A DNA stretch of 64,000 bases from Echinarachnius parma (taxonomy: Eukaryota; Echinodermata; Echinoidea; Clypeasteroida; Echinarachniidae), in assembly GCA_037951105.1 (NCBI GenBank), contig JBAMJV010008033.1, positions 34,853 through 98,852 on the forward strand. The letters run 5' to 3'. Positions 7,101 to 58,370 of this stretch are shown piece by piece; positions within the stretch are counted from its first letter, which is position 1; each line of letters starts with the position of its first letter. The notes below the pieces were generated by a model. That model made no database searches and was not told where the DNA came from. It saw nothing but the letters and a program-made list of their open reading frames with translations. Position numbers and translations under genes: made by a program.

Positions 7101-10100
7101 TGCCATGTTCGTGTAACTACCCAACATGCTTTGCAAATTATGACGTCTGTGTGGACTGTCCGAACCCAAAAAATCTTTTCACTGATTTGCAGACTCATGA
7201 AAGCGTCCCCAAGTATTCAAACAATGGTTTGGTGCGGTGAAAACTAGTTAAGTGCGGGAATGCATCATTGATCGATCACAGTGGTATCCGCACTGACGTA
7301 ACAATGGCGGCCTCCTGTGTTGGCGTGAACAGTGGTGTACTCGATTGTGTTTGTACACATATTTCTTCCAAAGCATATTACGATGTATAAAGTAGGATAA
7401 ACTCTTATTCTAGAGTTGCATTGGCCTTTAACTGCATATGCCGCAGTACCGTATTTGTCGGTGTATTAACCGCTCCGGTGTATTAACCGCACCCCCTAAA
7501 AAAAAAAAAAAAAAAAAAAAGTGAGGTTAAAAAAGTGAGGTTAATACGGTTGTGTATTAACCGCACACCCTTTTTTTTTTTTTTTTTTTTGAAAAAAGGT
7601 GCGGTTAATACACCAGCAAATACGGTAAAGACTTCAGGGTCAGACACGCTCACCAATGAGCTCATTCTCATGTTTATTTCCTCTCTCTCTTATCCATGTA
7701 GGTGAATCGGGACTTGGCAAGTCGACTCTCATCAACAGCTTGTTCCTCACAGATCTGTACCCAGAAAGACACATTCCAAATGCTGCAGGTTCGATTCTGA
7801 TTTTTTTTGTTTAAAACACATAATTGTTACTCGACTGTATTTTCTTAAGGGCTACTCGGGGGAAAACATAGGGCTTTTCTCAAATTGTTCTTGGACAATT
7901 TAAAGCAGAAATTTTTGTTTCCAAAAGTCAAATGCAACACTGCTCATGAATTGTTCAGTGTGTTCAATTTTTCAAACTGCAGACATCTTTTTTTTCATGA
8001 TCATAATCAATATTTATATGACTTCTCCTGCTCTATTAATCCACAGAGAAGATAGACCAGACAGTGAGCATCAATTGTAGATATTGAGGAGAGGGGACAA
8101 TTTAAAGCAGAAATGTTCATAGTCGACGTTGCTCATTAATTGTTTAATGTTTTATACTGCAAATATCTTTGACCTCGAGTTTATTAATGATCCTAACGGT
8201 TACTTATGACTTCTCGTGGGGGGTTTTTCACAAAGATCCTAAGTTGAACCTATCTCTAAGTAGGACTATGGTAAGCCATTTGTAGCCTTGGAATAAAATA
8301 TATTCAAAAGCAAAATTGCAAGTATTTTAGACTTTTCATAAATGTTACATCAAGAACATAAACTCTCCTTGATATATAAATATTAATGATTTGTATCAAC
8401 ATTTGTATGCCTTTTAAAAGAACTTTTACAAACTATTTCAAAGAAACTAATGGCTTTCCATACTTTTCAAGTCCAACTTAGAGTTAAGTTCAACTTAGAA
8501 TCTTTGTGAAACACCCCCCCCCCCCCCCGATCTATTAATAATCCACAGAGAAGATAGACAAGACGGTGAGCATCGATGCGTCGACTGTAGAGATCGAGGA
8601 GAGGGGAGTCAAACTGCGGCTGACCGTGGTGGACACCCCGGGATATGGCGATGCGATGAATAACAATGATTGGTGAGTAAATTGCCTGGGAGGTCACAGG
8701 TGTTGCATAAAGAGTTGCGATAAATCACAAGTCAGAAATATGCGCATAATATGAACCATATTGCCTGGGAGGTGTTGCATAAAGGGTTGCGATTAATCGC
8801 AAAGTTGCGATAAATCACAAGTCAGAAATATGCGCATATGAATCATATTGCCTGGAGGTGTTGCATAAAGAGTTGCGATTAATCGCTAAGTCAGAAAATA
8901 TGCAACATATGAACTAATCAGATTTGCGCAACTCTTTATGCAACACCCCCCCCCCCCCCCCCCCATGTCACCACTAGATAATAATTTGATAGGTTTCTGT
9001 TGAGCACGTATTACACATGAACAGGAGTACCTACAGTGCAGAATATGACAATGTTTGGTGTCACAATCACTTCGATGTAACACTCTGTTTGGAAGGGATC
9101 AAAGAATTTATCTGTTACACCGTTAGAGTCCATCTGAAAAGCACGGGCATGGATCCCAGGGGGGATGATGGGGATAAATATGTTGAATGGCTTCCTCTCT
9201 AATTGGTTCTACACACTGAAGTCTGTGATGACCTGTATGAGCGATTGAGCGTTATCTCAAAAATGTTGTCCAGCTTTAATATTGCCTTGTAGTTTTCAGC
9301 TTCTCATTCAATTCTTTAGTTTCAGCACACAACCAAAGCCAGGGAATAATTGTCCTGGTATCGCATCGCATCGCAGTTTGCTATGCATTTTTTGCATGAC
9401 TGCTATACAAAATATCTTTTGTGTAGCAGTTTTCTTCCATAGAAGTGTACAGAATTTCATTTGAAATATTTATCCATCGGCTGAAATTGCTAATCAAATT
9501 TGAGGAGGAAAATTATTCCCTGAAAGAACATACATTAAATTGATTATTCTCTGATTGTTACTACACACTTGTAGAAGAGGGAGACGAGAAATTATGCAAT
9601 ATAATTGTGTGGGTTTGAACTGTACTTGATGACCATGGGTGATAATAGAGCCAGAAGTGGCACATCGTGGCCCCATTGCAACTGTAAAGTTGCAATCAAT
9701 TGTGCAAATCTGATTGGTTCAATTCTGGCTTACAATTGACTGCAACTTTACAATCAATCGCAACTCTTTCTGCAATGGGGCCAATTACAGACATGACTTT
9801 GCTCCAAGAGTGGCCATTAGTAATATTATTCATTATGTATGTTTGTAATTTTGCAGCTTCGACCCCATACTGAAGTACATCGATGACCAGTATGACCGTT
9901 ACCTGAACGATGAGAGTGGGCTGAACAGAAGAAACATCGTTGACAACAGAGTACACTGCTGTTTCTACTTCATCTCACCCACTGGCCACGGGTAAGACAG
10001 AGATACGCAAACGCTGATTCGTTTTAGAACGTATAATAGTGATAATCATCAATCATAACCCGAAAAAGACAGGGCTTTTTCAGACCTTCCCAGAATGGGG

Positions 10101-11882
10101 ATGGGGGAGAGAGAGCACAAACAGCCACATGGAGATAATAATGTGCTCAGAACTTGAAATTGCACATTATGATAATTTAAACTTTGAATCAAATGAGACA
10201 AAAATGGTTCCCCAGGCAAGCAAAAGGCATTAAAGATTAGTTAATTTTCATACCTTTCATAGAATAAATCTTCGCAGATTCCTATTTTCAGTTTGACGGT
10301 AATTCTTGAATAAGATGCTGATATGAATTTCTTTGATTATTTTCTTATGTTCCCTCCTCTAACATTGAAACGTCGTCTATTTATTGATTCAGCCTGAAGC
10401 CTCTGGATATCGATTTCATCAAGGCGCTGCACAACAAGGTGAACATCGTCCCTGTCATTGCCAAGTCAGACACACTCACCAAGAGGGAACTCATCAAGCT
10501 CAAGCAAAAGGTAATCTTCTTCTCCATTTAACTAAACAATAATTTGCCTAACTTTTACCACTTGCGTGTTTAGTTTGTGAAAAATGTGAAATTCTTCATG
10601 TAAAATGTAAAATTCAGCTGCAAATGAAGAGTTTAATGACGCTAAAGCGTAACATGGCAAACATTGTCATTGCCAAGTCAGACACACTCACCAAGAGGAA
10701 ACTCGTCAAGCTCAAGCAAAAGGTAATCTTCTCCATAACTAAACAATAATTTACCTAACTTTTACCACTTGCATGTTTAGTTTGTATAAAATTCAGAACT
10801 CAACTGCACTTAATTTGGTATTGAAGAGTCTATTAAAGGGATCTAGTAACTTTGTTGATATGTGCAAAAAGTCATAAATGGTTGGTACAATGTATTTTGT
10901 TGTTATCTGATATGTCCACATGGTATTGTGTGAAAATTTCAAGTCAAATGGACGTTATATGGCCAAGTAATGAGCAAAAATGCAAAGGGATATTCACAAA
11001 CTCATTGCACTCACTTTGTACACGGTTTTCGCGATCCGTTGGATTATTTAACATCTGAACACTTCAATCGTAAATATCTTTTTAACGAAAGTGAAATTTG
11101 AAAAACCGAAACCTGTCCCATGATTTTATTGTTAATACGAATACAACAAGGTATGAGGGAACCGCTAGAATTCCAATTGAATTTTGAGGATTTGGACAAT
11201 GTTACTAAGTCCCTTTAAGGTGATGCATAACATATTAAACATCGTCGATTGCCATTGCCAAGTCGGGCACACTCAGGAAGAGGGAACTCATTGTCAAACT
11301 TAATTAAGCAAAAGGTAAATAACTCTGTAACAAAGCTAGTTTAACCTTCTCATTCTGAAGGCAATCAGCTAACATGTAAAGAGTATGTGACAGGTACAGA
11401 TTACTACAGAACTACTTGTAGAATGAGTTTCACGAGCTATTTCCTGCATAACAAGGTGAACATTGTCCCTGTCCTAGCCAAATCAGACACACTTACCAAG
11501 AGGGAACTGATTAAGCTCAAACAAAAGGTAATTTTTCTTCTACATAACTAAACAATAATTTGCCTAACTTTTACCACTCGCTTACATGTTCAGTTGTCAA
11601 GCTCAAGCAAAACATACTGTGTGTCTGGTAATGGTTCAGTCAAACCTGTCTATATTGCAGCCAACCAGTCCATAGCAACCAAAAAAATACTTTTTTTTTC
11701 ACGAGGGCGATTTTGAAAATTTTGAGGGAGAAAAACGCCCTCGTGAAATTATTCACGAGGGCTATTTTGGGGCTCACGGGGGCTCTTTTTTTTTTACATC
11801 GTTTTCACTGCTCAAGGGTCTAATAAATGATTATCATGATGTGATCTATCCGATTATGCCATGTTTGGTACGTTTCTTTTAC

Positions 11883-11927
<45 letters not shown>

Positions 11928-13360
11928 CCGCCCCCGTGCCGTGGCTCACGGGGGCGATTCCAAAGGTATCGGGGGCGAATCGCCCTTTGCCCCCGTGTAT
12001 TTTTTTGGTTGGTCCATAGAGGTCACCTGTGTGTAGCAGCCACTTTTCTTGTTTCCCCCTAAGTGGTCACTATACCCAGGTTTGACTGGAATGTATTTTA
12101 TATGTGCTTGTGTGTGCACATTTCTGTGTCATCATGTGTATTAACATGTGCTCTCACTGAAAGCCAGCTTTAATGTTAAATGACCAAAAAGACAACTACA
12201 GAGATATCTAGGTGTATAGGTTTACAACTAATTATAGCCAAGGGTTAAATTGCGACTAAGCTAGCTCAGTCATTCCGCAATACTCCTCAACAAGGATATA
12301 TCCATTCATGGCAAACTGGCTTGATTTACGAGCACATGAAACCAAGACTACCTATACCGTTTATATTCTGTGATGTTGATTTGATTATCATTAGATGTGA
12401 TTAATGGCAAGTCCTGCTACTCTACAGTATTTGATTGCATGTATACATTTGTCTACGATGTGTAGTCTTGTTTTACATAATTTATTGCTAGTAGGAACAG
12501 ATTAAGTAAGGTTCATAAGGTGAGGCTTCATTTAGTAGGTAGTATGAAATTGGAAAAAATATATAATATAATATTTAAGGAAATTGTATTGATAGTGGGT
12601 GGTTAGTTTATTTTCTGTTTGTAGCACAGTCTGATAACCTGTACTTGTATGTCAGATAACAAATTTACAGTATTATATATGACAGGGCTCCACATCTACT
12701 TTTTTTTGTCAGTGGCCCGGTTGGGCCAGTTCAATAATTTGTTCCCCTTTTCTGGTGGCCCGAAAGAAAATTTACTGGCCCCAAAATTTTATTTCATGAA
12801 TAAACTCTTTACTTTTCAAAATATCACTCTTTCCCGATCAAGCCTGTGATTATAGATGAAGAATGTCATGGAAGAATGCAAGATTTTTCTAATTTAGTCA
12901 ATGTCGGGTTGAAAATCTACTTGCCTGATCGGGCCACTAAAATATGACTTTTGTACAATTTTTGCTGGCCCGAAGTGCAATTTCACTGGCCCTGGGCAAG
13001 CGGGGCCAGTGCGAGTGTTGAGCCCTGCATATGACAAAATACTGTTATTGGAGGTGCTGTATGATAACTGGATGGGCTGGGTTTAAATCATGGGGTCCTT
13101 CGGAAATGCATTTAATTTATGTTGCTGCTGCTTGGCTGGTAATAATAATAAACCTGTAGCACTCTTGTATAGCAGCTCGGTCTAATAGGCTCCCCAGGGA
13201 ATTGAGATGGTATTGAAGGTAACTGTTTATGGTAGTACATGTAACCGATGTCATTATCAATGTGCGTATTGGTAGTGCACCTAGATAAGACACCAGCGCT
13301 GTATTACAATAAAAATGCTTTATTGTTATTATTAGTTGTGTTGTTATTATTATTATAATA

Positions 13361-13399
<39 letters not shown>

Positions 13400-16300: not shown

Positions 16301-19045
16301 ACGTGTATTATGACCATGTGCAATTACACGAGGTGTTCGCTACCCGGGCTTGTCCCTAGCTTGTCGATATCTCCCCCAGCGCTAGCGGCGCGGACAGGTC
16401 TGAACGGGCGGTGGATTTATGAATTTCACAGGCGGATATTGAATTTCTTCCAATATTTCTGTATTTAATGATGCTTAGGTTCGGATTTTACCACACAAGC
16501 CCTATTTCAATACATATTCAACAATATTGATCAATATAGATGTATTCGGCTACTTTCCCGAAACTGGACTTGGGCTTTAAGTTTAAGTCCTTATGTGATA
16601 TTGGGTCCAAAGGCAGGGCTCAACACATGCGCCCACGTGCACACATGCCCACTTGCGCAATGGCCTAGGCCCAGTTGAAATTAATGTCGCCCAGTAAAAT
16701 TTAATGAAAATCAAAGTTTTGTGGCCTGATCGTCCAACCTGATTTTCAAAAATTCACTATGAGGCATTTGAATCAGTCTCGTGAAGGGCCATTAGTCATA
16801 CATGACGATGATAACAACTGTAGTAGAGATGATATTGCTTATATTGAAGATGTTGGGGATGATGAATACAACTGGACATGGGTACCTCGGTCCAGTGTAA
16901 ATTAGCCTGATGCACCAATATGGTTGCTCGCCGGTAGTAGGCTCCCAGGGGGGTTGAGAATTTGCACAAGGTGCCCAAATGACAAGGGGTTATAATGATA
17001 ATTGTACACCAGGGCCCAGGGGCCCGATTACAGACCAGCGACATTTACCTTGGTAATTAGCATCATTGGCTCTAACTCATCGATGTCAATATGCTAGAAG
17101 AGTATAAAACTCAAAAGAACGTAGCAAAGCGCACATACCCCCTTACTCATTCAACCCTAAAGACTTACAGAGGCAATTTCAGAGATCAGTGGAACTAGGT
17201 CTGGTCCTGGGTCGTGATCATGCTCTCGGCCACAGGGCACATATTCATAAAAGCGTACCAGCTTAGTTTCTTGCTAAGTTTGTTTTGGATGACGTGGCTA
17301 TGTATCTAACACACAATCTTTTAGTTGCTAACTAGGGTTAACATAGTAGGTATCCAAGGCTAAACCAGCTAACCCCAGTTGGGGACTAGGAAAACTGTTT
17401 GTAGCACACTAAACTGTATGATTTGAAATGCACTTAGCATGGAACTAATCTAGCAGGGTTTTTATGAATATTGGCCCAGGAGTGTGCGTTATAAATGTTC
17501 AATCGATATTATTATTACTACTATTGTTATTATTTGTATTTGTATTATTATTATTATTATTATTATTGTTATTATTATTATTATTTCTTTTTTCAGTGCG
17601 TACATGGAGGACTTGAAGGATGTTACCCACGAGGTGCACTACGAGGCATTCCGATCTGAGAAGCTTGCGAAGAGCGGTGGTGCTTCTAAGAAATCTGCAT
17701 CGTAAGTCTGATGCATTTTTTGTTAACCTGCCCCCTGCAAGATTTTGCAATTCCCGTAGAGTACAAGGGTTCAAGTAACATCATTGTTTTTTCGAATTTC
17801 CCTTTCGTTAAAAAGGTATTTACAGTTCAAGTGACTATCTTTAATTCCTTTATCTCAGCAGCAGCCGGAGAGGAGGTTCAACATGATTGAAATTTTTGAA
17901 TTTGAAAGTCTCCCCTGGGAGCGTGTCAACGGTGTACAAAGTTATGGCAATGATTTTTAAAAAGGCTCAGAGTTATGCAGTGTGCACAAACTAGCCTAGT
18001 TCAAAATGGTGATCCGGGGCATAGCAGCCCCACGCTTGACTATCTTTAATTCCTTTATCTCGGCAGCAGCAGGAGAGGAGGCTCGACGACGGAGGAGCCG
18101 TCCAATGAGAAGGACCGTAGGCTGGAGGAGAAGGATGCCGAGGTAAGAAAAAACCTTGGTCATTAAAGTGATACATTAATAATAACAATAATAATAATAA
18201 TATCCTTGATTTATATAGCGCCTATCACGATCGATAATCATCTCTAAGCGCTTTACAATTACATTATATTTTATCACCTGACTTAGTAAATACAGTACAT
18301 GTAATATTTTTTGACATTACATGACACTGTTACATGGCAATTCAGATGATAAAACAGTTGTTAACTTTGCTGTCGGGGAAAATCATGGAATGTTCCCCTC
18401 GGGATTTTAAATGCTATTTCGTGAAGAAAATAAGTCCCTCGACTACGTCTCGGGACTTATTTACTCTTCCCTCAATAGCATTTAAAATCCCTTGGGAGTG
18501 GAACATTCCGTGCTTTTCCCTCCAGCACCAGTTAACATCTGTATAATATTAACTTCATATAATGTTTCCAAAAGTAATATTTTGGGCTTCAATCACACCA
18601 CCAGTTATCATTGTTAGATCTCTCCGAATGATATGTGAACATTTCATAGAAAAAGAAAACTGTTTACTTAGTTAAACAAGTTTAAAGTGATGTCAGATTT
18701 TATTATGCCTCCGCCAACGAAGTGGCCGGAATGCTTTTCAAATCAATCATAAATATCTCTATAATAAGGGAGATCACACACAAAAAAATCAGAAGCCATT
18801 TGACCTTCAGTATAGGCAGAACATTTGTGGGGGGACACATGCCCACCCCCCCCCCCCCCTCCCCACAGTAGCTATGCCCCTATTCCAGTCTCCAACAAAG
18901 CTTTTAAAAGGAGTTTTTAATCTAACCATCTATTAAATGTTTTGTCTTGTTTTCTCAGCTTCTTCGTATGCAGGCAATGTTGGCTCAGATGCAGAAACAG
19001 ATGGCCCAGGCAAACTCTGGAGGCATGCACTCAGAGGAGGTCTGA
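4192..19045 (+). CDS. SEPT2: Septin-2-like GTPase, 12 coding exons
   Basis: Septins are GTP-binding cytoskeletal proteins that form hetero-oligomeric filaments at the cell cortex, cytokinetic furrow and cilium base. Exons: 4192-4201, 4343-4356, 6673-6778, 7702-7788, 8549-8672, 9857-9991, 10393-10510, 13408-13509, 15135-15231, 16022-16070, 17597-17701, 18067-18142 and 18959-19045 (the first two encode only MASDPRST). All junctions are GT-AG and in phase, giving 369 residues (human SEPT2 is about 361). Visible motifs are the P-loop GESGLGKST (44-52), DTPGYGD (101-107), G4 motif AKSD (182-185, usually AKAD), the septin unique element around [14 protein letters not shown], and a C-terminal coiled-coil with repeated Met-Gln. 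Eight residues precede FxNPETP, as in vertebrate SEPT2, which supports the start. AAGATGGCG at the start codon resembles a YY1 site. A probable polyadenylation signal AATAAA lies at 22876. The header counts exons as 12 if the 10-bp and 14-bp starts are taken together. Confidence 0.96.
4699..4727. repeat. Perfect GC-rich hairpin in septin intron
   Basis: CCAGGCGCCGTCC is followed by GTA and the exact reverse complement, a 13-bp stem with a 3-nt loop in otherwise AT-rich intron DNA. A similar GCGCCGTCC-type palindrome, imperfect, is at about 5474-5494. They may be the two ends of one old element. No function is claimed. Confidence 0.7.
5567..5592. repeat. Short perfect palindrome
   Basis: TATGGTCCAC followed by TTAGGTGGACCAT forms a near-perfect palindrome (TGGTCCACttaGGTGGACCA) in a septin intron. 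It lies in a block with other small palindromes (GGTAATACACGGGAGATTACC) and no coding potential. Confidence 0.5.
7447..7627. mobile_element. Palindromic mariner-like MITE (CCGTA ends)
   Basis: The element begins TA-CCGTATTTGTCGGTGTATT and ends with the near reverse complement closing in AAATACGG-TA. Two homopolymer runs (A then T, about 20 each) separate the arms. TA on both sides fits a Tc1/mariner-type target duplication. The larger element at 13588-14912 shares the CCGTA...TACGG ends. Confidence 0.75.
7893..8100 (+). pseudogene. Broken tandem copy of the septin exon at 8549-8672
   Basis: Bases 8041-8098 repeat the splice acceptor (CCACAG) and the 5' half of the true exon, with substitutions and a small deletion that destroys the frame, and no donor follows. 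The intron sequence beside it is also repeated: ACAATTTAAAGCAGAAAT occurs at 7897 and 8098. The copies are 502 bp apart today. A MITE of about 310 bp (8217-8528) lies between them, so the original period was about 190-200 bp. Confidence 0.85.
8217..8528. mobile_element. GGGGGG...CACAAAGATCCTAAGTTG palindromic MITE, copy 1
   Basis: The left end GGGTTTTTCACAAAGATCC mirrors the right end GGATTCTAAG...CTTTGTGAAACACCCCCC across about 310 bp. Better copies are at 22287-22637 and 47936-48271. This copy ends about 20 bp upstream of a septin splice acceptor. The neighbouring duplicate at 8013-8046 preserves the uninterrupted sequence, so it serves as an empty-site control. The long C run at the right edge is an expansion of the terminal C stretch. 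Confidence 0.8.
8690..8965. repeat. GTTGCATAAAGAGTTGCGAT repeat with inverted end
   Basis: The motif TGTTGCATAAAGAGTTGCGAT recurs at about 8701, 8770 and 8860, and its reverse complement ATGCAACACCCC closes the block at about 8937-8965 after GCAACTCTTT. This is probably an internally expanded inverted-repeat MITE. A related small palindrome occupies 9665-9785 (GCAATGGGGCCA ends). Confidence 0.65.
9663..9785. mobile_element. Small inverted-repeat MITE
   Basis: GGCCCCATTGCAACTGTAAA at the left is mirrored by TCTGCAATGGGGCCA at the right, with the internal inverted copies AAAGTTGCAATCAATTG and CAATTGACTGCAACTTTA. It lies in a septin intron just before the exon at 9857 and has no coding potential. 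Confidence 0.65.
10640..10832 (+). pseudogene. Tandem copy 2 of the septin G4 (AKSD) exon
   Basis: Bases 10661-10722 repeat most of the exon at 10393-10510 (ATTGCCAAGTCAGACACACT through CTCAAGCAAAAGGTAATC), together with the following about 80 bp of intron (AACAATAATTTACCTAAC). The 5' third of the exon is missing and there is no acceptor, so it should not be spliced in. Period to the true exon is 212 bp. Confidence 0.85.
10833..11218 (-). mobile_element. TTAA-flanked MITE, family A, inverted copy
   Basis: This copy starts TTAAAGGGATCTAGTAAC and ends GTTACTAAGTCCCTTTAA. It is 386 bp, the same length as the copy at 861-1246 but in the opposite orientation. It sits between the second and third copies of the duplicated septin exon. 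Removing it reduces their spacing from 585 to 199 bp, so it inserted after the duplication. Confidence 0.88.
11219..11335 (+). pseudogene. Tandem copy 3 of the septin G4 exon, degraded
   Basis: ATTGCCATTGCCAAGTCGGG, AAGAGGGAACTCATTGTCAA and AAGCAAAAGGTAA align with the true exon at 10393-10510, with indels and substitutions that break the frame. It is the most diverged copy of the array. Confidence 0.75.
11430..11640 (+). pseudogene. Tandem copy 4 of the septin G4 exon, open frame with donor
   Basis: Bases 11448-11528 encode [19 protein letters not shown] and on to KQK without interruption and end at a good donor (AAAAG/GTAATT), followed by the same intron sequence as the true exon (AACAATAATTTGCCTAAC). 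The 5' end of the exon ([11 protein letters not shown]) is missing. A weak AG at about 11435-11440 would keep phase, but there is no polypyrimidine tract. It is most likely a pseudo-exon; use as an alternative exon is possible but unlikely. A further scrap, GTCAAGCTCAAGCAAAA, is at 11596-11612. Confidence 0.75.
11664..12022. mobile_element. Inverted-repeat element with long poly-T core
   Basis: CCATAGCAACCAAAAAAATA on the left mirrors TATTTTTTTGGTTGGTCCAT on the right. Inside are inverted CACGAGGGCG / CCCCCGTG modules and a T run of more than 40 bases at 11884-11927. It is non-coding and lies in a septin intron. Confidence 0.7.
12683..13027. mobile_element. hAT-like MITE with GGGCCAGT repeats
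   Basis: The ends are CAGGGCTCCACA and TGTTGAGCCCTG. The flanks share ATATGA, which fits a short target duplication of the hAT type. The interior alternates GGCCCGAAA... and ...ACTGGCCC motifs. Diverged relatives with the GGCCCGAnTGGGC core occur near 16614-16770, 29300-29540, 32725-32905 and 38400. Confidence 0.75.
13330..13400. repeat. (ATT)n microsatellite abutting a septin acceptor
   Basis: The ATT run ends 7 bp before the AG of the exon at 13408, so it replaces the usual polypyrimidine tract. A second ATT run, 17505-17587, abuts the exon at 17597 in the same way. Confidence 0.9.
13588..14912. mobile_element. 1.3-kb non-autonomous element, TACCGTAAACC ends
   Basis: The left end TACCGTAAACCGGGGTGACT is mirrored by the right end ending CCCCGGTTTACGGTA, with TA on both sides as in Tc1/mariner elements. 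The motif GGGGTGACTTTTGCC and its complement recur inside at 13757-13796, about 14490-14540 and about 14868-14884, suggesting a composite of nested copies. No transposase is encoded; the open frames inside are short and unrecognised. Confidence 0.8.
15245..15395. repeat. (GAT)n-rich microsatellite
   Basis: An imperfect GAT/GAC repeat directly after the donor of the septin exon ending at 15231. It generates a spurious Met-rich open frame. Confidence 0.9.
16093..16580 (+). mobile_element. TTAA-flanked MITE, family E, copy 1
   Basis: This 488-bp element starts TTAAAGGTGAAGGACAGTAG and ends GGACTTGGGCTTTAA. Its inverted partner of 480 bp lies at 19908-20387. It begins 22 bp after a septin exon (16022-16070). 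The interior has matching segments such as GATAGATATCGCCAACGCGG. No coding sequence is seen. Confidence 0.85.
17235..17482. mobile_element. Inverted-repeat MITE (CATATTCATAAAA ends)
   Basis: GGGCACATATTCATAAAAGC on the left mirrors GTTTTTATGAATATTGGCCC on the right, with inner matches CTTAGTTTCTTGCTAAG and CTTAGCATGGAACTAA. It has no coding potential. A fragment of a related element is at about 58373-58415. Confidence 0.65.
17505..17587. repeat. (ATT)n microsatellite abutting a septin acceptor
   Basis: Imperfect ATT/GTT run ending 9 bp before the exon at 17597. It generates poly-Ile and poly-Asn frames that are not genes. Confidence 0.9.
17833..17882 (+). pseudogene. Broken tandem copy of the septin exon at 18067
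   Basis: GACTATCTTTAATTCCTTTA followed by TCTCAGCAGCAGCCGGAGAG repeats the acceptor and first about 25 bp of the exon at 18067-18142 (GACTATCTTTAATTCC at 18038). The period is 205 bp. The copy ends within the exon and has no donor. Both carry a tandem CAGCAGCAG acceptor of the NAGNAG kind, so splicing could vary by one codon. Confidence 0.8.
18200..18262 (-). mobile_element. SINE 3' tail fragment
   Basis: On the - strand it reads TTGTAAAGCGCTTAGAGATG ... GGCGCTATATAAATC followed by a TTATT-rich tail, typical of the 3' end of invertebrate SINEs. A second fragment lies at 45855-45925. The tRNA-related head is missing. Confidence 0.6.
18350..18545. mobile_element. Hairpin MITE (GGGATTTTAAATGCTATT arms)
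   Basis: CAGTTGTTAACTTTGCTG... is mirrored by ...CACCAGTTAACATCTG, and GGATTTTAAATGCTATTTC by AATAGCATTTAAAATCCC. A relative with the same arms is at 45990-46120. The following 18546-18800 resembles part of the TTAAAGTGATC element found at 61356-61743. Confidence 0.7.
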
Positions 19046-19493
19046 GAAAAAGACTACACACACATACACAAACAGGTGAGGTAACCTTCAAACTTTGTAG
19101 CTGTCATTTCTTAAGGCCGAGTCGGTTTGGTCGGTCACACCGGTTCAGGACCGATGTGAACATGCCCCAGTTTCCTTTTACCTAAACCGGCGTACCAATA
19201 AATTATACTCATCCAAGCATCAGCAAAAATGCAGTGTTTTAGGCTTTCATTTTTCTTTTTATATGCCAATAATATAGGATAAATATTTAATATCAATCTT
19301 TATAGAAATATAGTATGACTGGACTGCTACCAAATACATGATAATTGATCATTATGTCGTCGGGTCACACGTAGGCCAACATTTTGGAGACTAATATTTG
19401 TTTTGGGATACAGATTTTAAAAGTATCCTTTGTATGAAACAACAATACAAATAAATGTTCATGCATATGAATATGATTATTGTAATTACTGTT

Positions 19494-19494
<1 letters not shown>

Positions 19495-19573
<79 letters not shown>

Positions 19574-25388: not shown

Positions 25389-25779
25389 TCTATAATCTCC
25401 AATTACAGATTCTTCAAGACATTTTTTGTCTGAAGCAGAAATGTTTTGGGGTTGTCGGTCTGTCCGTCCATCCCATTTTCATTCTTGCGATATCTTGAGA
25501 ACCGGTTGACAGATCAATTTGAAACTTGTTATGAGTGCACATATCAGGGTGACAATGCTCTGGTTATATTTTGGGGTAGGGAGGTTAAAGGTCAAGGTCA
25601 CAGGCCTCGTTATACATTTAAAAATAGCTTGTAATCGCAATATCTCAAGAACGGCTGACAAAATACCATCAAAATTTGTACTGTATGTATGTATCTTAGG
25701 GAGCTATTGAACTAGACAAAAATCAAATTGTGTTACAACATGAATCAATACAACATTAGTCCCATGAGTTTTCATCTGC

Positions 25780-26342
25780 TTCAAGCTTCCCAAAAGATGG
25801 TCTTATCCTTATCCTTGGGCCAATGAGAATGCGCCAGCGAGTCAAGGGCATCCATCTGGGTGATTGGAATGGAACCAACACAGTTTGGTCATGTAGAGCA
25901 GTTTTCTTCATCAATATTTGTTACAATACAAATCAATAACAAAATTAGTCTTGTGTGTTTTCAACAAATTTGAGCTTCCCGAAAGATGGTCTAGTCCTCA
26001 ATTCAACTGATCCATGAGCAAAGGGGCATGAGTCAGCTAGTCTAGGGCATCCATCTGGGTGATTGGAATGGAACCAACACAGTTTGGTCATGTAGAGCAG
26101 TTTTCTTCATCAATATTTGTTACAATACAAATCAATAACAAAATTAGTCTTGTGTGTTTTCAACAAATTTGAGCTTCCCGAAAGATGGTCTAGTCCTCAA
26201 TTCAACTGATCCATGAGCAAAGGGGCATGAGTCAGCTAGTCTAGGGCATCCATCTGGGTGATTGGAATGGAACCAACACAGTTTGGTCATGTAGAGCAGT
26301 TTTCTTCATCAATATTTGTTACAATACAAATCAATAACAAAA
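25780..26342 (-). repeat. 199-bp tandem array of the TRMT44 zinc-finger exon end
   Basis: The anchor GGCATCCATCTGGGTGATT recurs at about 25848, 26047, 26246 and 26445, exactly 199 bp apart. The last of these is the genuine TRMT44 coding copy. The three downstream copies each still read, on the - strand, through CWFHSNHPDGCPRLAD and SCPFAHG to FVENTQD and a stop codon, except the outermost, which is more diverged. The two middle copies look identical. Upstream of the finger each copy has unrelated sequence and no strong acceptor, so they are probably not separate exons. Confidence 0.9.
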
Positions 26343-26976
26343 TTAGTCTTGTGTGTTTTCAACAAATTTGAGCTTCCCGAAAGATGGTCTAGTCCTCAAT
26401 TCAACTGGTCCATGGGCAAAGGGGCATGCGTCAGCCAGTCTAGGGCATCCATCTGGGTGATTTGAATAGAACCAGCACAGCTTGGTCTTGTAGAGAAGTT
26501 TCCTCTCTTTTTCTCTTTTCTCGAGTTCTTGAGCATTTGTCTTCCGACCGTTTCTTCCTAGCGTTTCCCTTCCTTGGCCGCTAGTACTTGTTTCTGCGGG
26601 CGACAGATCCCAGTCTTTCAGTTCCACCTGGTTTCCCAGGACTGTTAAGTAAACAAATCAGTAAAACATATTTTGATTACATTTCTAGTAATTATCAAAT
26701 AACAATACATGCAGTTTGAACAACTCATTTTGTTTCAGTAAAGTTTCATCATCACCATCATCATCGTCTCCACCACCACCACCACTACCAGCATCATCAC
26801 GATGTCATTGCCGACTTCATAATCGTCATTGTTTTTGTCATCATTGTCATCATCAAAATCATCACCACCATTGCCATCATCAACAATGTCATCATCGTCT
26901 TCGTCACCTTCATCATCCTTGTCTTTGTTGTCATCATAATCACCATGATCATCATCATAATCATCATCATCCTTAC

Positions 26977-27014
<38 letters not shown>

Positions 27015-30000: not shown

Positions 30001-33000
30001 AAAGTCACAGTGCTACCCTGTTCGGCCTCTACATGTGTGCGCCCACTGCCAGTAGTTCTACAATCATCTATTTTCGAGGAATATGCCATCTCCGTGGAAA
30101 CCGCATCCTGAGCATGTGCCTTTGTGTTTGACTCGACGATGAGTGGTTGGGGTGGAGGAGTAGGAGGTGGAGAATCTGCATCATCTATGCTAATGAGAAG
30201 ACTGTGCGAGGCTCCATCATCTTTGGTGGACGATTGTTGTTCACTATTATTGCTCCCTCTTGCTTTCTTGCATCGCGCAGTCACGTAACTTCTGATTCGT
30301 TCGAGCACTCTCGTCTGATCCTCCTCAGGGTACGTTCTCTGCCTTCCAACGTGGCAAACCTGCATGAAATCAAATATCATTATCAGATCAATATCCTTTA
30401 TTTTAGATGGATCTAGTAACATTGTCAAATTCGACACAACATACTTAGGACTCTATAGCAGTTATCACACACCTTGCTGTATTCGTATTACCAATATTAC
30501 CAACAGGTTTTAGTTTTTACAAATTTCTCTTTCGTAATAAAGATATTTATTATTGAAGTGTTCAGATTTGAAAGTCACTGTGGGAGACTTCTGTGTAAAA
30601 AGTTAGTGCAATGTGTTAGCAAATATAACTTTGCATTTAAGCTCATTACTTGGTCGAAAGACATTCATTTACCATGAAATAATGAGATTGTAGTTTATGT
30701 TTTATTTTTGTTTGGAACTTATAAAGAATCCGTATAATACAATATTATTCAAATACACAAGTCTCCCCGATACATTTTAAAAATTGTATTGATCCAATAG
30801 TGCAATGTGTTAGCAAATATAACTTTGCATTTCGGCTCATTACTTGGTCGAAAGACATTCATTTAACATGGGATATTAAATGAGGTTGTAGTTTATGTTT
30901 TATTTTTGTTTGGAACTTATAAAGAATCCATATATTATTGAAATACACAAGTCTCTCCATAACATTTACAAAATTGTTATTGGTCTAAGAATAGTATTCA
31001 TGAAAATAACACAAAATTTCAGAAATCCTACCCTTTTTGTTGACGGTATTCTCATCCTGTCTTCTCCCACTTCGAATCCACATGTCTCCCCGACGTCTTT
31101 CACAAAGTTGAGGTAGGTCCGATACTGACTCTCCCCCGATTTCCTCTGCCCAAACTTGCGGTCAAAGTCGTGGAAGCAGCATGGCAGAACGAAGTACCGA
31201 GTCTTGAAAGAGGATCTACATAAAGCGAAAGTAGCAATTTATTTCATTATAACTGTTTTAGTTTCTATATCTTGAAAAGTGTTTATTGAGAAGACACCTT
31301 TGGCCTATATTGTGGTCAAAGTCATGGAAGCAGCATGGTGCAACAGAGAAGCGAGTCCTGAATCCAAATCTGAATAAAGAAAAAGAAAACAAAATTTAAT
31401 CATAGGTTCCTATTTTTTTATCATGATTTACATGGATGCACAAAGAAAAGACCATCAAAATTATATGTTTTGCACTCTCAACACATGAAGTCATGAAGAT
31501 ATGAAAGAAGCATGGTAGGAAAAAGAAGCGAGTCTACAATCTCTACATGCATAAAATAAAAGAAAGATTAGTTAATGAGTTGTGATTTAAATTTAATACA
31601 GACAACTATTAATCTTTACCTGGCAGCCATAACAGGTGTGAATGCATGGTGTGAAACCGTCCAGGTACATTGTAGTTGCAAATATACCCATTATAAGCCT
31701 CCTTACAGATCTCCGTGGAAGAAAGTTACCCCAAAGTAGAGCACAAACAGAAGTAGCATTCAATAATGTAATTCAATATCTTTAGTGATTGTATGTTTCT
31801 GAGAGTTCTTTTCTTACCTGGCAGCCATGACAGGAATCCACGGCGTGAGCTCGTCAGAATGGTTGCCAATCAGCCAATCATAGTCCTCGTAAGAAGTCTC
31901 CATGGATGGGATGATGGTACCCTCTTCCAGATTAGTCTCAGGACCGTAGAGATCCCAAATCTTCCGCCGTCGCAGGTCGATGCCCTTTCCGGGGTACTGG
32001 CAAAATTTAGATTGGACGAATTTCAAACCAAAGTTCACAATATAAGTTCAGAAACAACAATGCTGCTAATTAGAACATAGAACAAATGACATGATTCTTT
32101 GGAAGTTCAACTCATCAGAATAATTCTGTTTAATAGTTAAAGAAAATGATGCCTCCAGAGAAATGCTATCAGAATCTGAACATTAAAACTTGGATTTTAA
32201 ATGAATACATAAATAAGTACTTTTGTTACAATGAATAATGACGTTGACAGAAGTAACACCATCCTCACCCCTTCGCTGTTCAAAATGTGCACAAGGAGAC
32301 CATTCCCACACCCCAGGTCCACAAACGACTGCTTCCTCTCATCACCATGGTTACCAGATGCCTTCCTCTCCTCCTCAAAGAGCAGCAGGAGGTAGGTTGC
32401 TATGGCAACATCCTCGTACACAAACTTCTTGGGGTCCGTGTTCTCTGGCCACATCTGGACACAAAAGAGAAGAAATTCAGACATGACAATATTTGGTATA
32501 ATTATGATGCACTTCAGGGATAAAAATATTGAAACACGTACAAGCTGCTCTGCATTAGGCACTAGATAAAAATATTATTATTATTATTATCATTATTACA
32601 ATTATTACTATTATAATAATTACTAGTATTATTATTTCTCATGATTTTTCTCATCAAATGAAAACTAATGATTTTTCCAATAAGTTTTAAGTTATTAAAC
32701 ATACATTACAAAAATTATCAAAATTAGTGGCCTGCAGGGCCAATACAAATTTGCTTTAGGCCACCTAATTTCATTGATTCTCGATCCCACTGGCCCGAAT
32801 GGGCAAACCAAATATGACAGAATTTGTTGTTCAAATTAATTTTTTGGTTTTGGCCAGGAGAATGTGAGCAATTTAATTTTGACTTGCCCGACTGGGCCAC
32901 AAAAAGTTAAAGGGGACCACCAGGCAAAGAACAACACATTAATATGTTATGGTACTGTTTTGTGATATCAAATAGATACCCAACATTTTGCAAAGGGTTG

Positions 33001-53600: not shown

Positions 53601-56600
53601 CACCCTGTCCCTTTGCTTCATATTGTGTCATTCATTTAGTTTGTTTGTTCATTTGTTTATTCATTTGGGTGTGTTTTTTTCATTCATTTATACATTCATT
53701 CATTTATTAATAAATTTTGATCAGTAAATTCATTCATCTATTTATTAATCCATCTACCCATCCATCCATCCATCCATCCTTCCTTCCATTTGTTCATTCA
53801 TTCATTCATTCATTTGTTCATTCGTTCATTTATCCAATCGTTCATTCATCTATTCATTCATTCATTCATCCATTCATTCCATCCTTCATTCATTCATTCA
53901 TTCATTCATTCATTCATTCATTCATTCATTCATTCATTCATTCATTCATTCATTCATTCATTCATTCATTCATTCATTCATTCATTCATTCATTCATTCA
54001 TTTGTCAATCAATCATACATTTCATTATTTTGTTATTCATCCATTAATGTATTTATTTGTTCTTTCATTTTATTAATTAGTTCATGAATTAAATCATTCA
54101 TTCCTTCATCTATTCATTCTGTCTATAATTTGTTTATTCATTCATTTGTTCATCTTCCTGTCCTTTCATTCCTTCATCCATGCACGTATCTAGTATCTAG
54201 TATACTGTATATCTATCTATTTTTCAATGCGCTAGACCAGTCTCTGTAGAGAGACTGTTCAATCTTATCAATTATTAATATATTTATTCATTCATTAGTT
54301 TTGTTTAATGTGATGGTTGCGTGTGAATGTATTGGAATATCTTTGGATTCATCTGTTATTTTTATTTCAGCTTGTATTATACCATGGACTTTTCTTGTCA
54401 CGAACACATGTCCGTTTTCCTTGTTTATGATACACTGTAGGCTTAGCTTTGTAACTTATTGTGTTGCCAAAGTACAACTTGATTATAAAACTGTTAATTT
54501 CACCTAAAATTTCCCAAATGGCAATTTTATTATTCTTATATATTCTAAAATGCTAAACATCAAAATGTGGAGTAACCTCATTTCTCTGCTCTAGTTGTTG
54601 CTTTGTCTGATTTCTATTTGTCCATCGCGTTGATTGAGTAATCTACTTCAACAATGAGCACAATACAGCATGATTAAATGGATATTATGAGCTCTTTTCT
54701 TCTAGATAATCATACAATTTGAAAATAATTCCCCCAATTTTTAACTAGAAATCATCATGAAAAGATTGTAAACAAAAGTGGTTACAATTATGAAGAGGAT
54801 GGTATAGCGCACTGCGAAGAAAAAAATAATGAAATGTTGTTATTCTTAAAATTGTTAGAATGAAAATATCTATAATGATCAATTACCCACAAACTAGACT
54901 AAATGGAGCATAGACTTTTATAAGGCACTTAGATGATGGGGAGCTATTCCGATGAATTCATTTTCAATTGTGATGAATTTTCTTATCAAAAGAACATTTG
55001 TTTGAATTGAATTCTCATTTGAAGTTTAATTTCCTATCAGAAATTAAAGGGACTTAGTCACATTGTCCAAATCCTCAAAACTTACTTGGAACTCTAGTGG
55101 TTTTCTCATACCTTATCATATTCATTAAAAGCACGGGACAGGTTATTCAAATTTCCATTTCGTTCAAAAGATATTTACGATTGAAGTTTTCAGATATGAA
55201 ATTGTCTACGGATAATTTCATGCCATGTACAAAGTAAGTACAATGAGTTAGTGAATATCACTTTGCATTTTTGCTCATATCTCAGCCAAAAAACATCCAA
55301 TTAGCATGAAATTTTCACACATTACTTTGTGGACATATCATATGACTCCAATACACATTTTATTAATCACGCATCACTTTTTGCACTTGCCAACAAAGTA
55401 ACTAGATCCTAGATCACATAATCTTACAATATTTTTTGTATACAATCTTAGTGTCTCAAATATCACTTTAAAGTATCAGCTTTGTAACTAATCATAATGG
55501 CCCCTGCCTTTATAACCACATTGGCCCATTATTCATTATGTTCACGATTTATCGGTAAATGTAGAATTTATGATTTGTTGGAAATGTGGACAACAAATCA
55601 ATCAAATCAAATCAACTTTTGGTTTCATACTGAGTCTATTTTAGATGATAGCTGAGCTTTATAGTAAGCAACATGCAGTCCCTTAAAGGGATTTAGTAAC
55701 ATTAAATATGGATAAAGTGTCTTGTTGAATGTTACTGTTAGGAATCTTACCACACGGTCAGTGTGTTGATAGTCACTAGTCACTAACTAGGTTTGTATAG
55801 GTGAGCATTTATTGCCCTCAAAAGATAATCCTAGTTGGCATCTAAAATGATCTCTCATTCAATCAATTCGCCATTTCATCTTGAATCTAGACTTAGAATG
55901 GAACTTAGTTAGTGTGATACGTGTGGTTTGCGGTTGCACCATGCCGTATGAGGAGAGGATTGGTGAGTCCTGAGAAGGACTGTTGGTATTCTTTCTAGGA
56001 TAGTTCTAAAAAGGACTGCATGTTGGTAGTCCTGGAAAGGACTGTTGGTATTCTTTCTTGAGCTTGTAGTTCTAATAAGGGCTACAGCGCCGGGTATAGT
56101 TATTGTAAGGAGAGTGTTGGTGGTAGGAGGGGCTACGATGGAGAACAAGCCTATCAACCAATTTCTGTCTATTTGTTGATTCTCAGCAGTAACGGTATCC
56201 CATTCAGGGCTGGTCCCCAAAATACTTGGATTGTAGTCCATGGCGATTGCATGTTATGCCATAATCAACTGATTTATATACATGTAGATAGGTTTACTAA
56301 CCCGTTCAGGACTGGTCCCCAAAATACTTGGGCTAGGGTCTATGGAGAATGCATGTAAATGCAAACATGAAATTGTCGTAATTTGGTTGAAAATGCAAGA
56401 ATTATGGGGAAATATTACAATACTTTTAAATGATCAGCAACATGTTGGTCGGGCTAACAGAAACAGTGTAATAAACATGAACACACTTATATTATTCACT
56501 CTGCTTGTTTTATGAATATATAGTTCCATGTTTGGTATATATTACTTGTCATTTGCCTCGACAAAGGATATGCTAGATCTGAAAGCTTGGCACGTTTTGA

Positions 56601-58125
56601 CTTGCATTTACTATTAAAGGGTACCACCACCCAAAAATAACATCTTATTATAGAAAGGTACCATCTTTATTATTACCATTCCTTAAACAAGTTCACAAAA
56701 ATATGTTTTCAAAAAAATATATATAATTGCAAAACGCATCACCATTCTCAACCATGCGTTCATGCGGTCTGAATTGTGTAGACTATATGCGTGCAGAGCC
56801 AGAGCGCACTGTGCAGAGCGAATGAATCATCCGGGAATCTATTGACGTATGCGTGAAAGCATTGGCGCACTCGCAAATGCTTGGCCCGTATGGAACCAGG
56901 AAATAGCAGTGGTTCCGTAAGTGGAAATTAAGTGCTTTGTTTATGAATTACACAACCCTTTGCAAAATGTTGGGTATCTATTTGATATCACAAAACGGTA
57001 CCAAAACATATAATAATGTGTTGTCCTTTGCCTGGTGGTCCCCTTTAATAGCTTGTTAAAAACTTGTACAAAATCATATTTTGATGTTGGAATTTCTCTC
57101 TGTTTACCATTCTGTTAAAGACAAAGATAGATATGAGAAATTATTGTAATAATACATTTGTTTTAGGGTCAGGGTTCACGGTCAAATAATATATGGGAAA
57201 AAAGGGAATCCACTAAATATATATAAGCAGTTCAGAAAAAGGAGGGAAAAAAGCCTGAACCCACAGGCAATGGGTATATATAGTGGGTATTGACATACAA
57301 TTCTGTTTGTCCATTTTGTTTGACCATCCTGTTTGTATTGTGTCTGATTTGAATGATGGTATAGCCTGGGCATGGAGTTGAGCAATGCTTATGACTATCA
57401 GATTGCATTAGAATGCAGAAAATCAAAGTCTATTAATTTTCTCTTTTGCAAAACCGTCCTTTCCCCGAGCTCCCAATTCTTGTACAAAGATTTGTTCATC
57501 CTTGATATTTGTTAATTTGCCTAAAGGCCAAAGTATGGTAAGCGTGAGACAGAATATGTTGTATCATTGATATTCTGTGCTTTGGCAAACTAAAACCTTT
57601 TAGTTTGCGAAAACAGAAGTAAAGTCAACCAAAAAAAAATTTAATTATTTTAGTTTGCACAATATTATATTTTCTGATATTATTTGTGTTCCATCATATA
57701 TATTTCTGGTCAGTTTCCCGATTTTTGAAATAACTGTAAAACTTCTAACACCATCTATTCCCACTTTCACCTTTTCCCCAACACAGTACATTCTGTACGA
57801 CGAGGATGACGATGTCGAGGATGAAGACTACCTGGAGGAGGTGGAGATCGATGATGCGTCCTACTGCCCCTCCGGCCCACCCTCCCTGCCCCTACCTGCG
57901 AAAATTGCCCTCATCTTCGTCTACACGCAGCTAGTCTACCGAACTATGTCCCTATCTGGTGGGCATGCCCCCTTTAAGGCTTACGTACCGGTTGGTTTTC
58001 ATGGTATGTTAACCAATGGTGGGCCCTTCAAAGATGTTGGATACTTAAGGATGGGCCAACTAATAATCCTAGCGGTGTTTTATCCACTCCGGTTGTTTGG
58101 TGAAAAGAAGGAAGATGACTGGTAA
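35664..58125 (+). CDS. Unrecognised multi-pass membrane protein, 8 exons
   Basis: I do not recognise the family. Exons: 35664-35822, 36259-36477, 37206-37297, 38292-38356, 38644-38758, 40923-40984, 41797-41921 and 57787-58125. Junctions are GT-AG and phases agree, giving 391 residues. Hydrophobic segments lie at about 2-24, 30-50, 56-80, 83-105, 127-148, 157-177, 180-198, 248-268 and 322-345. A strongly acidic stretch (YDEDDDVEDEDYLEE, from about 282) starts the last exon. The start ATG is preceded by an in-frame TTG but no earlier ATG in the exon. It shares a promoter with TRMT44. The last exon is less certain: it follows a 15.9-kb intron, its phase fits, but its 3' 80 residues are tandemly duplicated and could be read-through. 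Confidence 0.72.
36905..37030. repeat. (GAT)n microsatellite
   Basis: Imperfect GAT/AAT run in an intron of the membrane-protein gene. It is not coding. Confidence 0.92.
39006..40563. mobile_element. Foldback element 2
   Basis: The outer ends TAGTCCAGTAG and CTACTGGACTA are inverted repeats and the arms pair over most of 1.56 kb (GAGCTAATTTGCATATTTCTG with its complement, and so on). GTTGCC-N5-GGCAAC occurs at 39116-39132, 39460-39476, 40106-40122 and 40450-40466. Modules such as GGAATCCATTTCC and GCCATCTTGG are shared with the element at 2591-4068. It lies in an intron of the membrane-protein gene and ends about 360 bp before the exon at 40923. Confidence 0.85.
41190..41590. mobile_element. 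Inverted-repeat element around a tRNA-like segment
   Basis: CATAAAGGAAACTG...CTAGAAATATTTTAAATGAT occurs twice on the left (about 41195 and 41300) and once as its complement on the right (41548-41588). Between them, 41467-41520 reads GGCTTGATGGTTGAGCACCG ... GGTTTGAAGCC, which resembles a decayed tRNA with A- and B-box-like motifs. It is not a functional tRNA gene as far as I can see. Confidence 0.55.
43378..43648 (-). mobile_element. tRNA-derived SINE
   Basis: On the - strand the head contains an A-box-like TGGTATATTGG and a perfect B box GGTTCGATTCC (43579-43589 on +), then a body with CAGCAAGACACTTTATTG and a 3' end AAAGTGCTATATAAGAATG next to an ATAATAATAATAA tail. This is the usual layout of a polymerase III-driven SINE mobilised by a LINE. 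It appears full length. A degraded relative lies at 28815-28935. Confidence 0.85.
43800..44130. repeat. TCCGTCCGTCCGTCTG repeat with GGTCAAAGGTCA motifs
   Basis: A GTCC/GTCT run is followed by two copies of AACTTTCCAACC...GTTTGTAACC and ATGATATGCTGGGGTCAAAG, about 180 bp apart. The direct GGTCAAAGGTCA spacing resembles nuclear-receptor half sites but is part of a dispersed repeat. Confidence 0.6.
44133..44825. repeat. Minisatellite, about 74-96 bp units, 8 copies
   Basis: The unit contains TTTGACTGTCTATAGAGACC, CACCTGCTGATAAAGACCAC and CCCTTGGGTGGTCTTTATAG. CCTGCTGATAAAGACCAC recurs at about 44166, 44247, 44321, 44411, 44507, 44579 (shortened), 44669 and 44758. Each unit is itself partly palindromic (GGTCTTTATAGA / TCTATAGAGACC). 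Confidence 0.9.
45035..45735. repeat. Tandem repeat, 168-187 bp units, 4 copies
   Basis: GGGGCAAGTAAAAATGTATG recurs near 45091, 45259, 45437 and 45624. Each unit also contains ACTTGCCC, ATTTCATAAATGG and ATCGGGCAACT. It is non-coding. Confidence 0.88.
47936..48271. mobile_element. Palindromic MITE copy 3, nested in a smaller element
   Basis: This 336-bp copy matches 22287-22637. It splits a short repeat whose ends read ACCCGTTCAGG before it and AGGACTGGTCC...TCTTGAACGGGTTAA after it (to about 48352). Uninterrupted relatives of the host repeat are at 56298-56360 and 59388-59480. Confidence 0.85.
48893..49640 (-). mobile_element. 5'-truncated CR1/Jockey-type LINE, 3' end of reverse transcriptase ORF
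   Basis: The - strand frame 49626-49084 encodes the C-terminal part of a non-LTR retrotransposon protein: RRLKSFDFPRNDLL, YMGYITPVLDYCVPV, NLERIQKRVLRIILG, WLPVKRENRYNFRN and a final RILNN before the stop. This is the segment that follows the reverse transcriptase catalytic core in this group. The catalytic core itself is missing. The 3' UTR ends at 48893 in ATTCAATTCAATTCAAT, a short tandem tail typical of CR1-like elements. Confidence 0.85.
50696..51108 (-). mobile_element. Small Penelope-like element remnant
   Basis: The direct repeat AAGTTTTAGACTA flanks the block (50696-50708 and 51096-51108) like a target duplication. Just inside are inverted repeats (50706-50731 and 51039-51064). On the - strand, AACGAAGGGTTGCAGATGCG followed by CCCGAAACGTTGTAC resembles the conserved CTGATGA...CGAAAC block of Penelope-like elements. 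The - strand frame 51059-50730 is open but low-complexity (repeated NQRxEP) and I do not recognise it as a protein. Confidence 0.5.
51740..51960 (+). pseudogene. N-terminal fragment of a Crypton/DUF3504-like protein, frameshifted
   Basis: An ATG at 51740 opens a frame MAATDVRFELFNEAE. A one-base shift near 51790 moves into the frame ESESKNTKRQLKFSLKVF, then QDYCDAG and LSDVDLKALDQVLGRLYFRV, ending at TGA 51960. The pattern (Lys/Arg-rich stretch, FxxYC, then an acidic LxxLDxxLxxFY helix) resembles the start of Crypton-type tyrosine recombinase-derived proteins such as the KIAA1958/ZMYM group. Nothing further downstream was recognised. It could alternatively be the first exon of an unidentified gene with a sequence error. 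Confidence 0.4.
52112..52336. mobile_element. MITE with CCCGGCGCAGACAGAGC ends
   Basis: TTAAGCCCGGCGCAGACAGA on the left and TCTGTCTGCGCGGGCATTA on the right are inverted repeats of about 30 bp (extended by GCTGACTCGAC / GTCGAGTCGGC). The TTA-type flank fits a PIF/Harbinger-like 3-bp target, but this is tentative. Confidence 0.75.
52461..52583. repeat. Large hairpin, CGATGG...CTATCACTTCC
   Basis: GGCGATGGCAAACTATCACT with TCCTCGGCGATC pairs with AGCTCGCCTCGGAAGTGAT and GATTGTCCCATCGCC. The centre GCTATCTTTCC...GGAAAGATAGC also pairs. The arms are about 55 bp. No coding role is seen. Confidence 0.8.
53750..54060. repeat. (CATT)n tetranucleotide repeat
   Basis: A nearly pure ATTC/CATT run between 53880 and 54002, flanked on both sides by degenerate versions that extend over about 53630-54180. 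It produces spurious Ile-His-Ser-Phe periodic frames. Confidence 0.95.
56614..57048. mobile_element. TTAA-flanked MITE, family D, copy 2
   Basis: It runs from TTAAAGGGTACCACCACCCA to TGCCTGGTGGTCCCCTTTAA and is inverted relative to 32907-33318. It shares the internal motifs AACGCATCACCATTCT, CGCATGAACGC (as complement) and TTTGCAAAATGTTGGGTATC. Confidence 0.85.
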
Positions 58126-58370
58126 AATTCCCAACCATAATCGCCTTCAACTTTGTCTTAACGCAGCTTGTCTACCGGACTATGTCACTATCTGGTGGGC
58201 ATGCCCCATTTAGGGCTTACGTACCGGTTGGTCTTCATGGTATGTTAACAACTGGAGGGCTTTTGAAAGATTTTGGTTACTTTAAGATGGGTCAACTAAT
58301 AATCTTAGCAGTGTTTTATCCACTCTGATTGTTTTGGTGAAAAGAAGGAAGATGACTGGTAAAACTCCCG
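58126..58370 (+). pseudogene. Tandem copy of the membrane-protein last exon end
   Basis: Bases 58141-58365 repeat 57905-58125 at a spacing of 236 bp. The copy reads LVYRTMSLSGGHAPFRAYVP on through MGQLIILAVFYPL and then hits TGA where the first copy has CGG, followed by an extra T. It lies after the stop codon of the gene, so it would be 3'UTR. Confidence 0.85.

What the first reader, a model, noticed from the sequence alone, without database searches (positions are those of the whole stretch)
7893..58370. Recurring tandem duplications of about 200 bp that capture exon edges in all three genes
Direct copies of exon borders sit next to the real exon in septin (three exons), TRMT44 (exon 5 end, exon 6 start, last exon) and the membrane-protein gene (last exon). 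Measured spacings: 212, 199 (after removing a 386-bp MITE) and 220 bp; about 190-200 (after removing a MITE of about 310 bp); 205; 198; 154 and 180; 199 three times; 236; and 192 for an intronic repeat. Most are close to one nucleosome repeat. This looks like a local mutational process with a preferred size, not random duplication. The size link to nucleosomes is inference.
Basis: partly seen in the sequence, partly recalled or inferred. Interest (0 to 1): 0.85.

Follow-up and report, generated by a model that had tools for sequence, protein, structure and literature searches.

The report
Short local duplications at exon borders
In this stretch of animal-like DNA, pieces of roughly 60 to 240 letters were repeatedly copied next to themselves, sometimes taking part of a gene's coding block along; this most likely is ordinary DNA-repair scarring, and nothing here shows that chromatin sets the size.

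Summary
Corrections: the 205-bp septin case is a 51-bp copy nested in a MITE remnant, not a tandem unit; the "192-bp" repeat lies in a MITE copy; the equal 199s in TRMT44 are steps of one array showing exchange between units.

A systematic scan, reduced to 21 loci after stated exclusions, gives units of 63-236 bp. Seven touch an exon, against 3.7-4.6 expected at random (P 0.05-0.16). Slow decay of the exon copy alone can give such an excess.

Detection power is flat from 80 to 2000 bp. Units of 150-240 bp exceed decaying size laws (12 of 18, P below 0.01, bin chosen afterwards), but sizes also fit a flat 80-240 bp spread (KS P 0.71).

So a short-range duplication process is supported in this one window. 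A 200-bp peak or a nucleosome link is not. Best explanation: local break repair (tandem and non-tandem copies from within about 200 bp), then unequal exchange. This is a known kind. The genome-wide test could not be run.

The parts
7893..8097 (+). upstream copy of septin intron end plus start of exon 8549-8672 (unit 202 bp); dead copy, frameshift and stop
   Evidence: translation
8217..8527 (.). palindromic MITE-like insert inside the second unit, dispersed in window for 8218-8293 and 8334-8519
   Evidence: removed only for measuring
8549..8672 (+). real septin exon ([21 protein letters not shown]...)
10393..10510 (+). real septin exon ([39 protein letters not shown])
10663..10837 (+). unit 2: second half of the exon, donor site and intron start, 212 bp from unit 1
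10833..11218 (.). 386-bp MITE inserted in the array
11248..11318 (+). unit 3, most decayed copy
11444..11595 (+). unit 4, 88% to unit 1, open frame, lacks the exon's 5' third
17832..17882 (+). 51-bp copy of the acceptor region and first 21 bases of exon 18067-18142, nested in a MITE remnant (17763-17956)
18037..18087 (+). source of the 51-bp copy
25722..26504 (-). TRMT44 last-exon array, nearly four units of 199 bp; the real exon is 26343-26641
30604..30988 (.). 194-bp tandem repeat within a MITE copy
31143..31590 (-). TRMT44 E6 start (real 31032-31215) and two old upstream copies, steps 154 and 177
31582..31739 (-). old copy of TRMT44 E5 end and donor (real exon 31818-31995), step 198
57903..58132 (+). 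last coding exon of an unidentified membrane-protein gene, unit 1
58139..58369 (+). unit 2, in the 3' region after the stop; 6-bp filler 58133-58138 at the junction

Best explanation
These are scars of short-range DNA break repair, followed in some places by exchange between the new repeats. Two nearby nicks or breaks, filled in and rejoined, leave a direct tandem copy of the stretch between them (septin 202 bp, membrane gene 236 bp). The same repair sometimes pastes a short piece from within about 200 bp into the break without making a tandem unit (septin, 51 bp). Once two copies exist, unequal exchange adds further copies with the same step, which is why 199 recurs in TRMT44. Exon edges are included because the gene-dense window offers many, and such copies stay recognisable longer because one member of the pair is under selection. 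Shown here: the copies, their sizes, array mosaicism, a 3-bp junction microhomology and a 6-bp junction filler. Inferred: the repair pathway, and that the copies have no function.
For: Contiguous tandem units and sizes. Local direct pairs kept after stated exclusions have units of 63-236 bp although power is 0.92 or more on average from 80 to 2000 bp. The junctions of the two clean pairs look like end joining: shared GGA at the 202-bp septin junction, and 6 unshared bases at the 236-bp junction. In the TRMT44 array all 10 mismatches between units 1 and 2 lie in the first 94 of 199 bases, and units 2 and 3 are identical (chance 0.0006 if spread evenly), as exchange between units would leave. 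The 51-bp septin copy inside a MITE is a non-tandem local copy. The review passage in PMC7407515 describes in rice tandem, partly tandem and non-tandem insertions of 10-1000 bp, with donors within 200 bp of a break; PMC5730883 (passages) ties tandem duplications to end joining of staggered breaks.
Against: Only two junctions were clean enough to read; old copies have lost theirs. A simple decaying size law does not fit (too many at 150-240 bp), so the repair model needs a reason for that range. Differences between real exon and copy are richer in synonymous changes than expected in some pairs (septin unit 4: 6 of 7 changed codons), which pure decay does not explain well.
Confidence: 0.7

Rival explanations
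1. Nucleosome-sized process: breaks or nicks fall in linkers on either side of a nucleosome, so the copied unit is about one nucleosome repeat, with exons favoured because they hold nucleosomes.
For: 12 of 18 units lie at 150-240 bp, more than decaying laws predict. Exon-touching loci have larger units than the others (Mann-Whitney P 0.012 for 7 against 14; P 0.020 without the 51-bp case).
Against: Sizes also fit a flat 80-240 bp spread (KS P 0.71), and units of 63-137 bp are common. Unit ends in the exon-touching cases lie inside exons, not around them (coordinates), although only such cases could be recognised as exon capture. There are no chromatin data. The 150-240 bin was chosen after seeing the sizes.
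Confidence: 0.08
2. Functional alternative exons: the copies are spare or mutually exclusive exons.
For: Septin unit 4 keeps the frame and donor, and 6 of 7 changed codons are synonymous; TRMT44 unit 2 keeps the frame and its cysteines.
Against: No copy is a complete exon in the alignments. The septin 8047 copy has a frameshift and stop. In septin unit 4 the exon's first 34 bases are missing, and my reading finds no convincing acceptor. The copies of the two last exons lie after the stop. E6 copy 1 has 9 of 13 changed codons nonsynonymous, and septin unit 2 has 2 of 2.
Confidence: 0.05
3. Meiotic double-cut fragments: SPO11 double cuts release short fragments that are pasted in nearby or elsewhere.
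For: Insert sizes reported in mutant mice are 15-967 bp, median 95, in Atm mutants and 19-339 bp, median 67, in Mre11 mutants (PMC12918824, passages), which covers the sizes here.
Against: Those inserts come from other hotspots, and the tandem duplications reported there form at double cuts at adjacent hotspots. No recombination map exists for this genome.
Confidence: 0.08
4. Chance plus selective reading: ordinary minisatellite-like repeats, with the reader picking those near 200 bp and near exons.
For: The scan finds 14 loci that touch no exon, with units of 63-232 bp; exon contact is only weakly above random placement (7 of 21, P 0.16).
Against: The exon-edge copies themselves are far above shuffles, and their sizes are larger than those of the other loci.
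Confidence: 0.09

Closest known systems
Natural insertions in rice that form tandem duplications by patch-mediated break repair (Vaughn and Bennetzen 2014; the paper itself is not held; known here from the review passage in PMC7407515)
   Same: tandem and non-tandem local copies, donors within about 200 bp, sizes within 10-1000 bp
   Different: animal-like genome and fixed old copies, not recent polymorphisms; a hump at 150-240 bp in one window
Tandem duplication across an intron-exon boundary in the potato RdRp gene (PMC4974935, abstract)
   Same: a tandem copy that crosses an intron-exon boundary
   Different: there a new spliced intron was detected; here no transcript data exist and most copies look dead
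Tandem duplications from end joining of staggered breaks in mouse ES cells (PMC5730883, passages)
   Same: direct repeat of the stretch between two nicks
   Different: induced by Cas9 nickases; the sizes were not compared here
Small segmental duplications in Drosophila (PMC6380325, abstract and passages)
   Same: frequent small duplications, 83.4% under 500 bp
   Different: population survey by pseudo-heterozygous sites; no unit-size peak was seen in the passages shown

Membership tests
short-range break-repair duplication (patch-mediated kind) | direct copies next to their source, on the same strand | tested here: met
short-range break-repair duplication (patch-mediated kind) | non-tandem copies from within about 200 bp also occur | tested here: met
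   one case: 51 bp at 17832-17882 from 18037-18087; a 205-bp tandem copy followed by a deletion is not excluded
short-range break-repair duplication (patch-mediated kind) | junctions with short microhomology or filler | tested here: inconclusive
   only two junctions read: GGA shared; 6-bp filler
short-range break-repair duplication (patch-mediated kind) | arises as a new insertion against an empty ancestral site | not testable with these tools
   no relatives or individuals held: scans found none; some searches did not complete
nucleosome-length duplication | unit size peaks at the nucleosome repeat | tested here: inconclusive
   excess at 150-240 bp over decaying laws, but flat 80-240 bp fits
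nucleosome-length duplication | unit ends at linkers | not testable with these tools
   no MNase data
alternative (mutually exclusive) exons | complete exon copy with open frame and both splice sites | tested here: not met
   alignments; frames; splice sites judged by eye
minisatellite or satellite array | many head-to-tail copies kept alike by exchange | tested here: inconclusive
   TRMT44 array has nearly four units with mosaic identity; most other exon-edge cases have two or three copies

The most novel reading that the evidence does not exclude
In this lineage a germline duplication process copies about one nucleosome repeat of DNA, preferring exon-bearing stretches, and so keeps seeding partial exons and spare splice sites beside real exons.
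Probability: 0.07. Interest if true: 0.75.

Novelty: new member of a known kind. Interest (0 to 1): 0.3.

Why it matters
If the size range held genome-wide and matched nucleosome spacing, it would tie chromatin to a common germline mutation and to the raw supply of new exons and splice sites. As it stands, it is a dense natural record of short-range duplications at exon borders in one window, useful as a test case.

Tried and rejected
Relatives: septin scans of genome contigs and viral contigs gave 33 and 6 pattern matches, none confirmed. tRNA and Rfam scans: nothing. Membrane gene identity: no Pfam family at E up to 0.1, no PDB match at E up to 1. The wide scan failed on gap settings and was redone. 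In one search the e2 translation was in the wrong frame; redone.

Rows dropped before counts. The gapped scan gave 29 clusters. For the 21 loci I merged the two septin exon-4 clusters and dropped seven: 752 (MITE, 166), 2806, 3398, 39042 and 40039 (direct repeats of 338-349 bp in long palindromic elements), 13598 (183, between element-like ends) and 33707 (332, score 52.6, marginal). For the 18 unit sizes I further dropped the 51-bp septin case and two units under 80 bp (63, 77), where the power test fails. Adding back 344, 400 (a 27-bp pair), 332, 166 and 183 leaves the 150-240 excess (P 0.00005 power law, 0.0019 exponential) but removes the upper limit (P 0.10 and 0.17). The locus at 8681 was counted as touching an exon (8 of 21, P 0.065) because of loose bounds; with its true start it does not (7 of 21, P 0.157). 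The membrane gene's exon list is incomplete (4 exons listed by reading); missing exons would raise the random expectation. Exon bounds were read by eye from frames and splice sites.

The 200-bp peak was rejected as unproven: flat 80-240 bp fits equally.

Full report
What was checked.

Are the copies real? An ungapped scan of offsets 30-700 gave a highest chance score of 18 in six shuffles, while the exon-edge pairs reach 43 (septin 205), 64 (septin 212), 454 (TRMT44 199) and 142 (membrane 236). The E5 copy scores only 19 there, but a gapped comparison gives 76.7 against a maximum of 32.0 in 100 shuffles. In one search, 11 of 12 comparisons exceeded their shuffles; the one that failed was the stretch upstream of the septin 17832 copy, which has no partner. 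A second, gapped scan found 29 clusters above score 52, with one such window in seven shuffled windows.

What each case is. Septin 202 bp: an exact tandem unit from intron into exon; the copy has a frameshift and stop, and a 311-bp palindromic insert later split the second unit. Septin 212/199/220: one array of four units with a 386-bp MITE inside; unit 3 is the most decayed. Whether its steps are independent events cannot be told. Septin 205: only 51 bp are copied, 30 bases of intron end and 21 of exon, and they lie inside a MITE remnant whose two parts continue each other. A 205-bp tandem copy with a later deletion is not excluded, but a single pasted piece is simpler. TRMT44 last exon: nearly four units, steps exactly 199; units 2 and 3 are identical, and the ten differences between units 1 and 2 all fall in the first 94 bases, which points to exchange between units. 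TRMT44 E6 and E5: old copies at about 73% identity or less. Membrane gene: unit of 236 bp, 88% identity, with six extra bases at the junction. The 194-bp repeat at 30604 is in a MITE copy.

Is the size special? After stated exclusions the scan leaves 21 local loci with units of 63-236 bp. Artificial duplications planted in the window were found in 92-100% of trials on average from 80 to 2000 bp at 5-25% divergence, 32% at 63 bp and none at 50 bp or less, so the method does not create an upper limit. Of 18 tandem units of 80 bp or more, 12 lie at 150-240 bp. Power-law and exponential fits predict fewer: P at most 0.0003 and 0.0066 over nine sets, including sets that add back weak or element-borne cases. 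The lack of units above 240 bp is less firm: P 0.015 to 0.14 (power law) and 0.05 to 0.21 (exponential). A flat spread from 80 to 240 bp fits well (KS P 0.71). The bin was chosen after seeing the data, and 18 units from one window are few. So there is a short-range size limit or hump, not a demonstrated 200-bp peak.

Are exons special? With 24 exons marked by eye, 7 of 21 loci touch an exon against 4.6 expected (P 0.157); 7 of 17 without dispersed families, 4.0 expected (P 0.075); 7 of 13 among the non-dispersed loci within the genic span, 3.7 expected (P 0.046). An earlier count of 8 (P 0.012-0.065) included a locus whose repeat starts just after the exon. Because one member of an exon pair decays slowly, exon pairs stay visible longer; by my rough estimate this alone could give about a 1.5-fold excess. 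Exon-touching units are larger than the others (P 0.012; 0.020 without the 51-bp case), which I cannot explain.

Local inverted pairs. A minus-strand scan lists many hairpins and element ends, and few unique non-element pairs; I did not turn this into a count.

Are the copies functional? No copy in the alignments is a full exon. Changed codons, synonymous against nonsynonymous: septin unit 4, 6 and 1; septin unit 2, 0 and 2; TRMT44 unit 2, 6 and 4; membrane copy, 10 and 8; E6 copy, 4 and 9; random expectation 22-25% synonymous. Since the real exon side accepts mainly synonymous changes, a mixture near 40% is expected (my estimate). Septin unit 4 is still unusual and stays open.

Literature seen. 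Review passages describing rice insertions of 10-1000 bp, tandem or from within 200 bp of a break (PMC7407515, passages); a potato gene with a tandem copy across an intron-exon boundary (PMC4974935, abstract); end joining of staggered breaks making tandem duplications (PMC5730883, passages); ectopic inserts of double-cut fragments in mouse meiosis (PMC12918824, passages); small duplications in Drosophila (PMC6380325, abstract and passages). Nine answered searches listed no paper that I recognised as reporting a nucleosome-sized tandem-duplication peak; that library lacks most subscription papers and I saw listings only.

Verdict. The nucleosome idea is neither shown nor excluded.

Noticed in passing
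11444-11595: Septin unit 4 differs from the real exon in 7 codons, 6 of them synonymous, and an AG lies at the phase-correct distance upstream, though without a pyrimidine tract (by eye).
   Followed up: partly
861-1246, 10833-11218, 30401-30680, 42480-42812, 47324-47697, 49663-50029, 55043-55409: A MITE-like family of about 386 bp with several copies in the window, on both strands.
   Followed up: partly
2600-4066 and 39051-40531: Long imperfect palindromes that carry internal direct repeats 338-348 bp apart.
   Followed up: partly
44123-44824, 45032-45752, 62105-62909: Satellite-like arrays with units of about 75-91, 168-183 and 115 bp.
   Followed up: partly
53630-54125: Long TTCA-type simple repeat array.
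   Followed up: no
49084-49659, - strand: 191-residue open frame that I recall as retrotransposon-like; Pfam gave no match at E up to 0.1.
   Followed up: partly
25722-26504: TRMT44 units 2 and 3 are identical over 199 bases, so copy number may vary or be misassembled.
   Followed up: no
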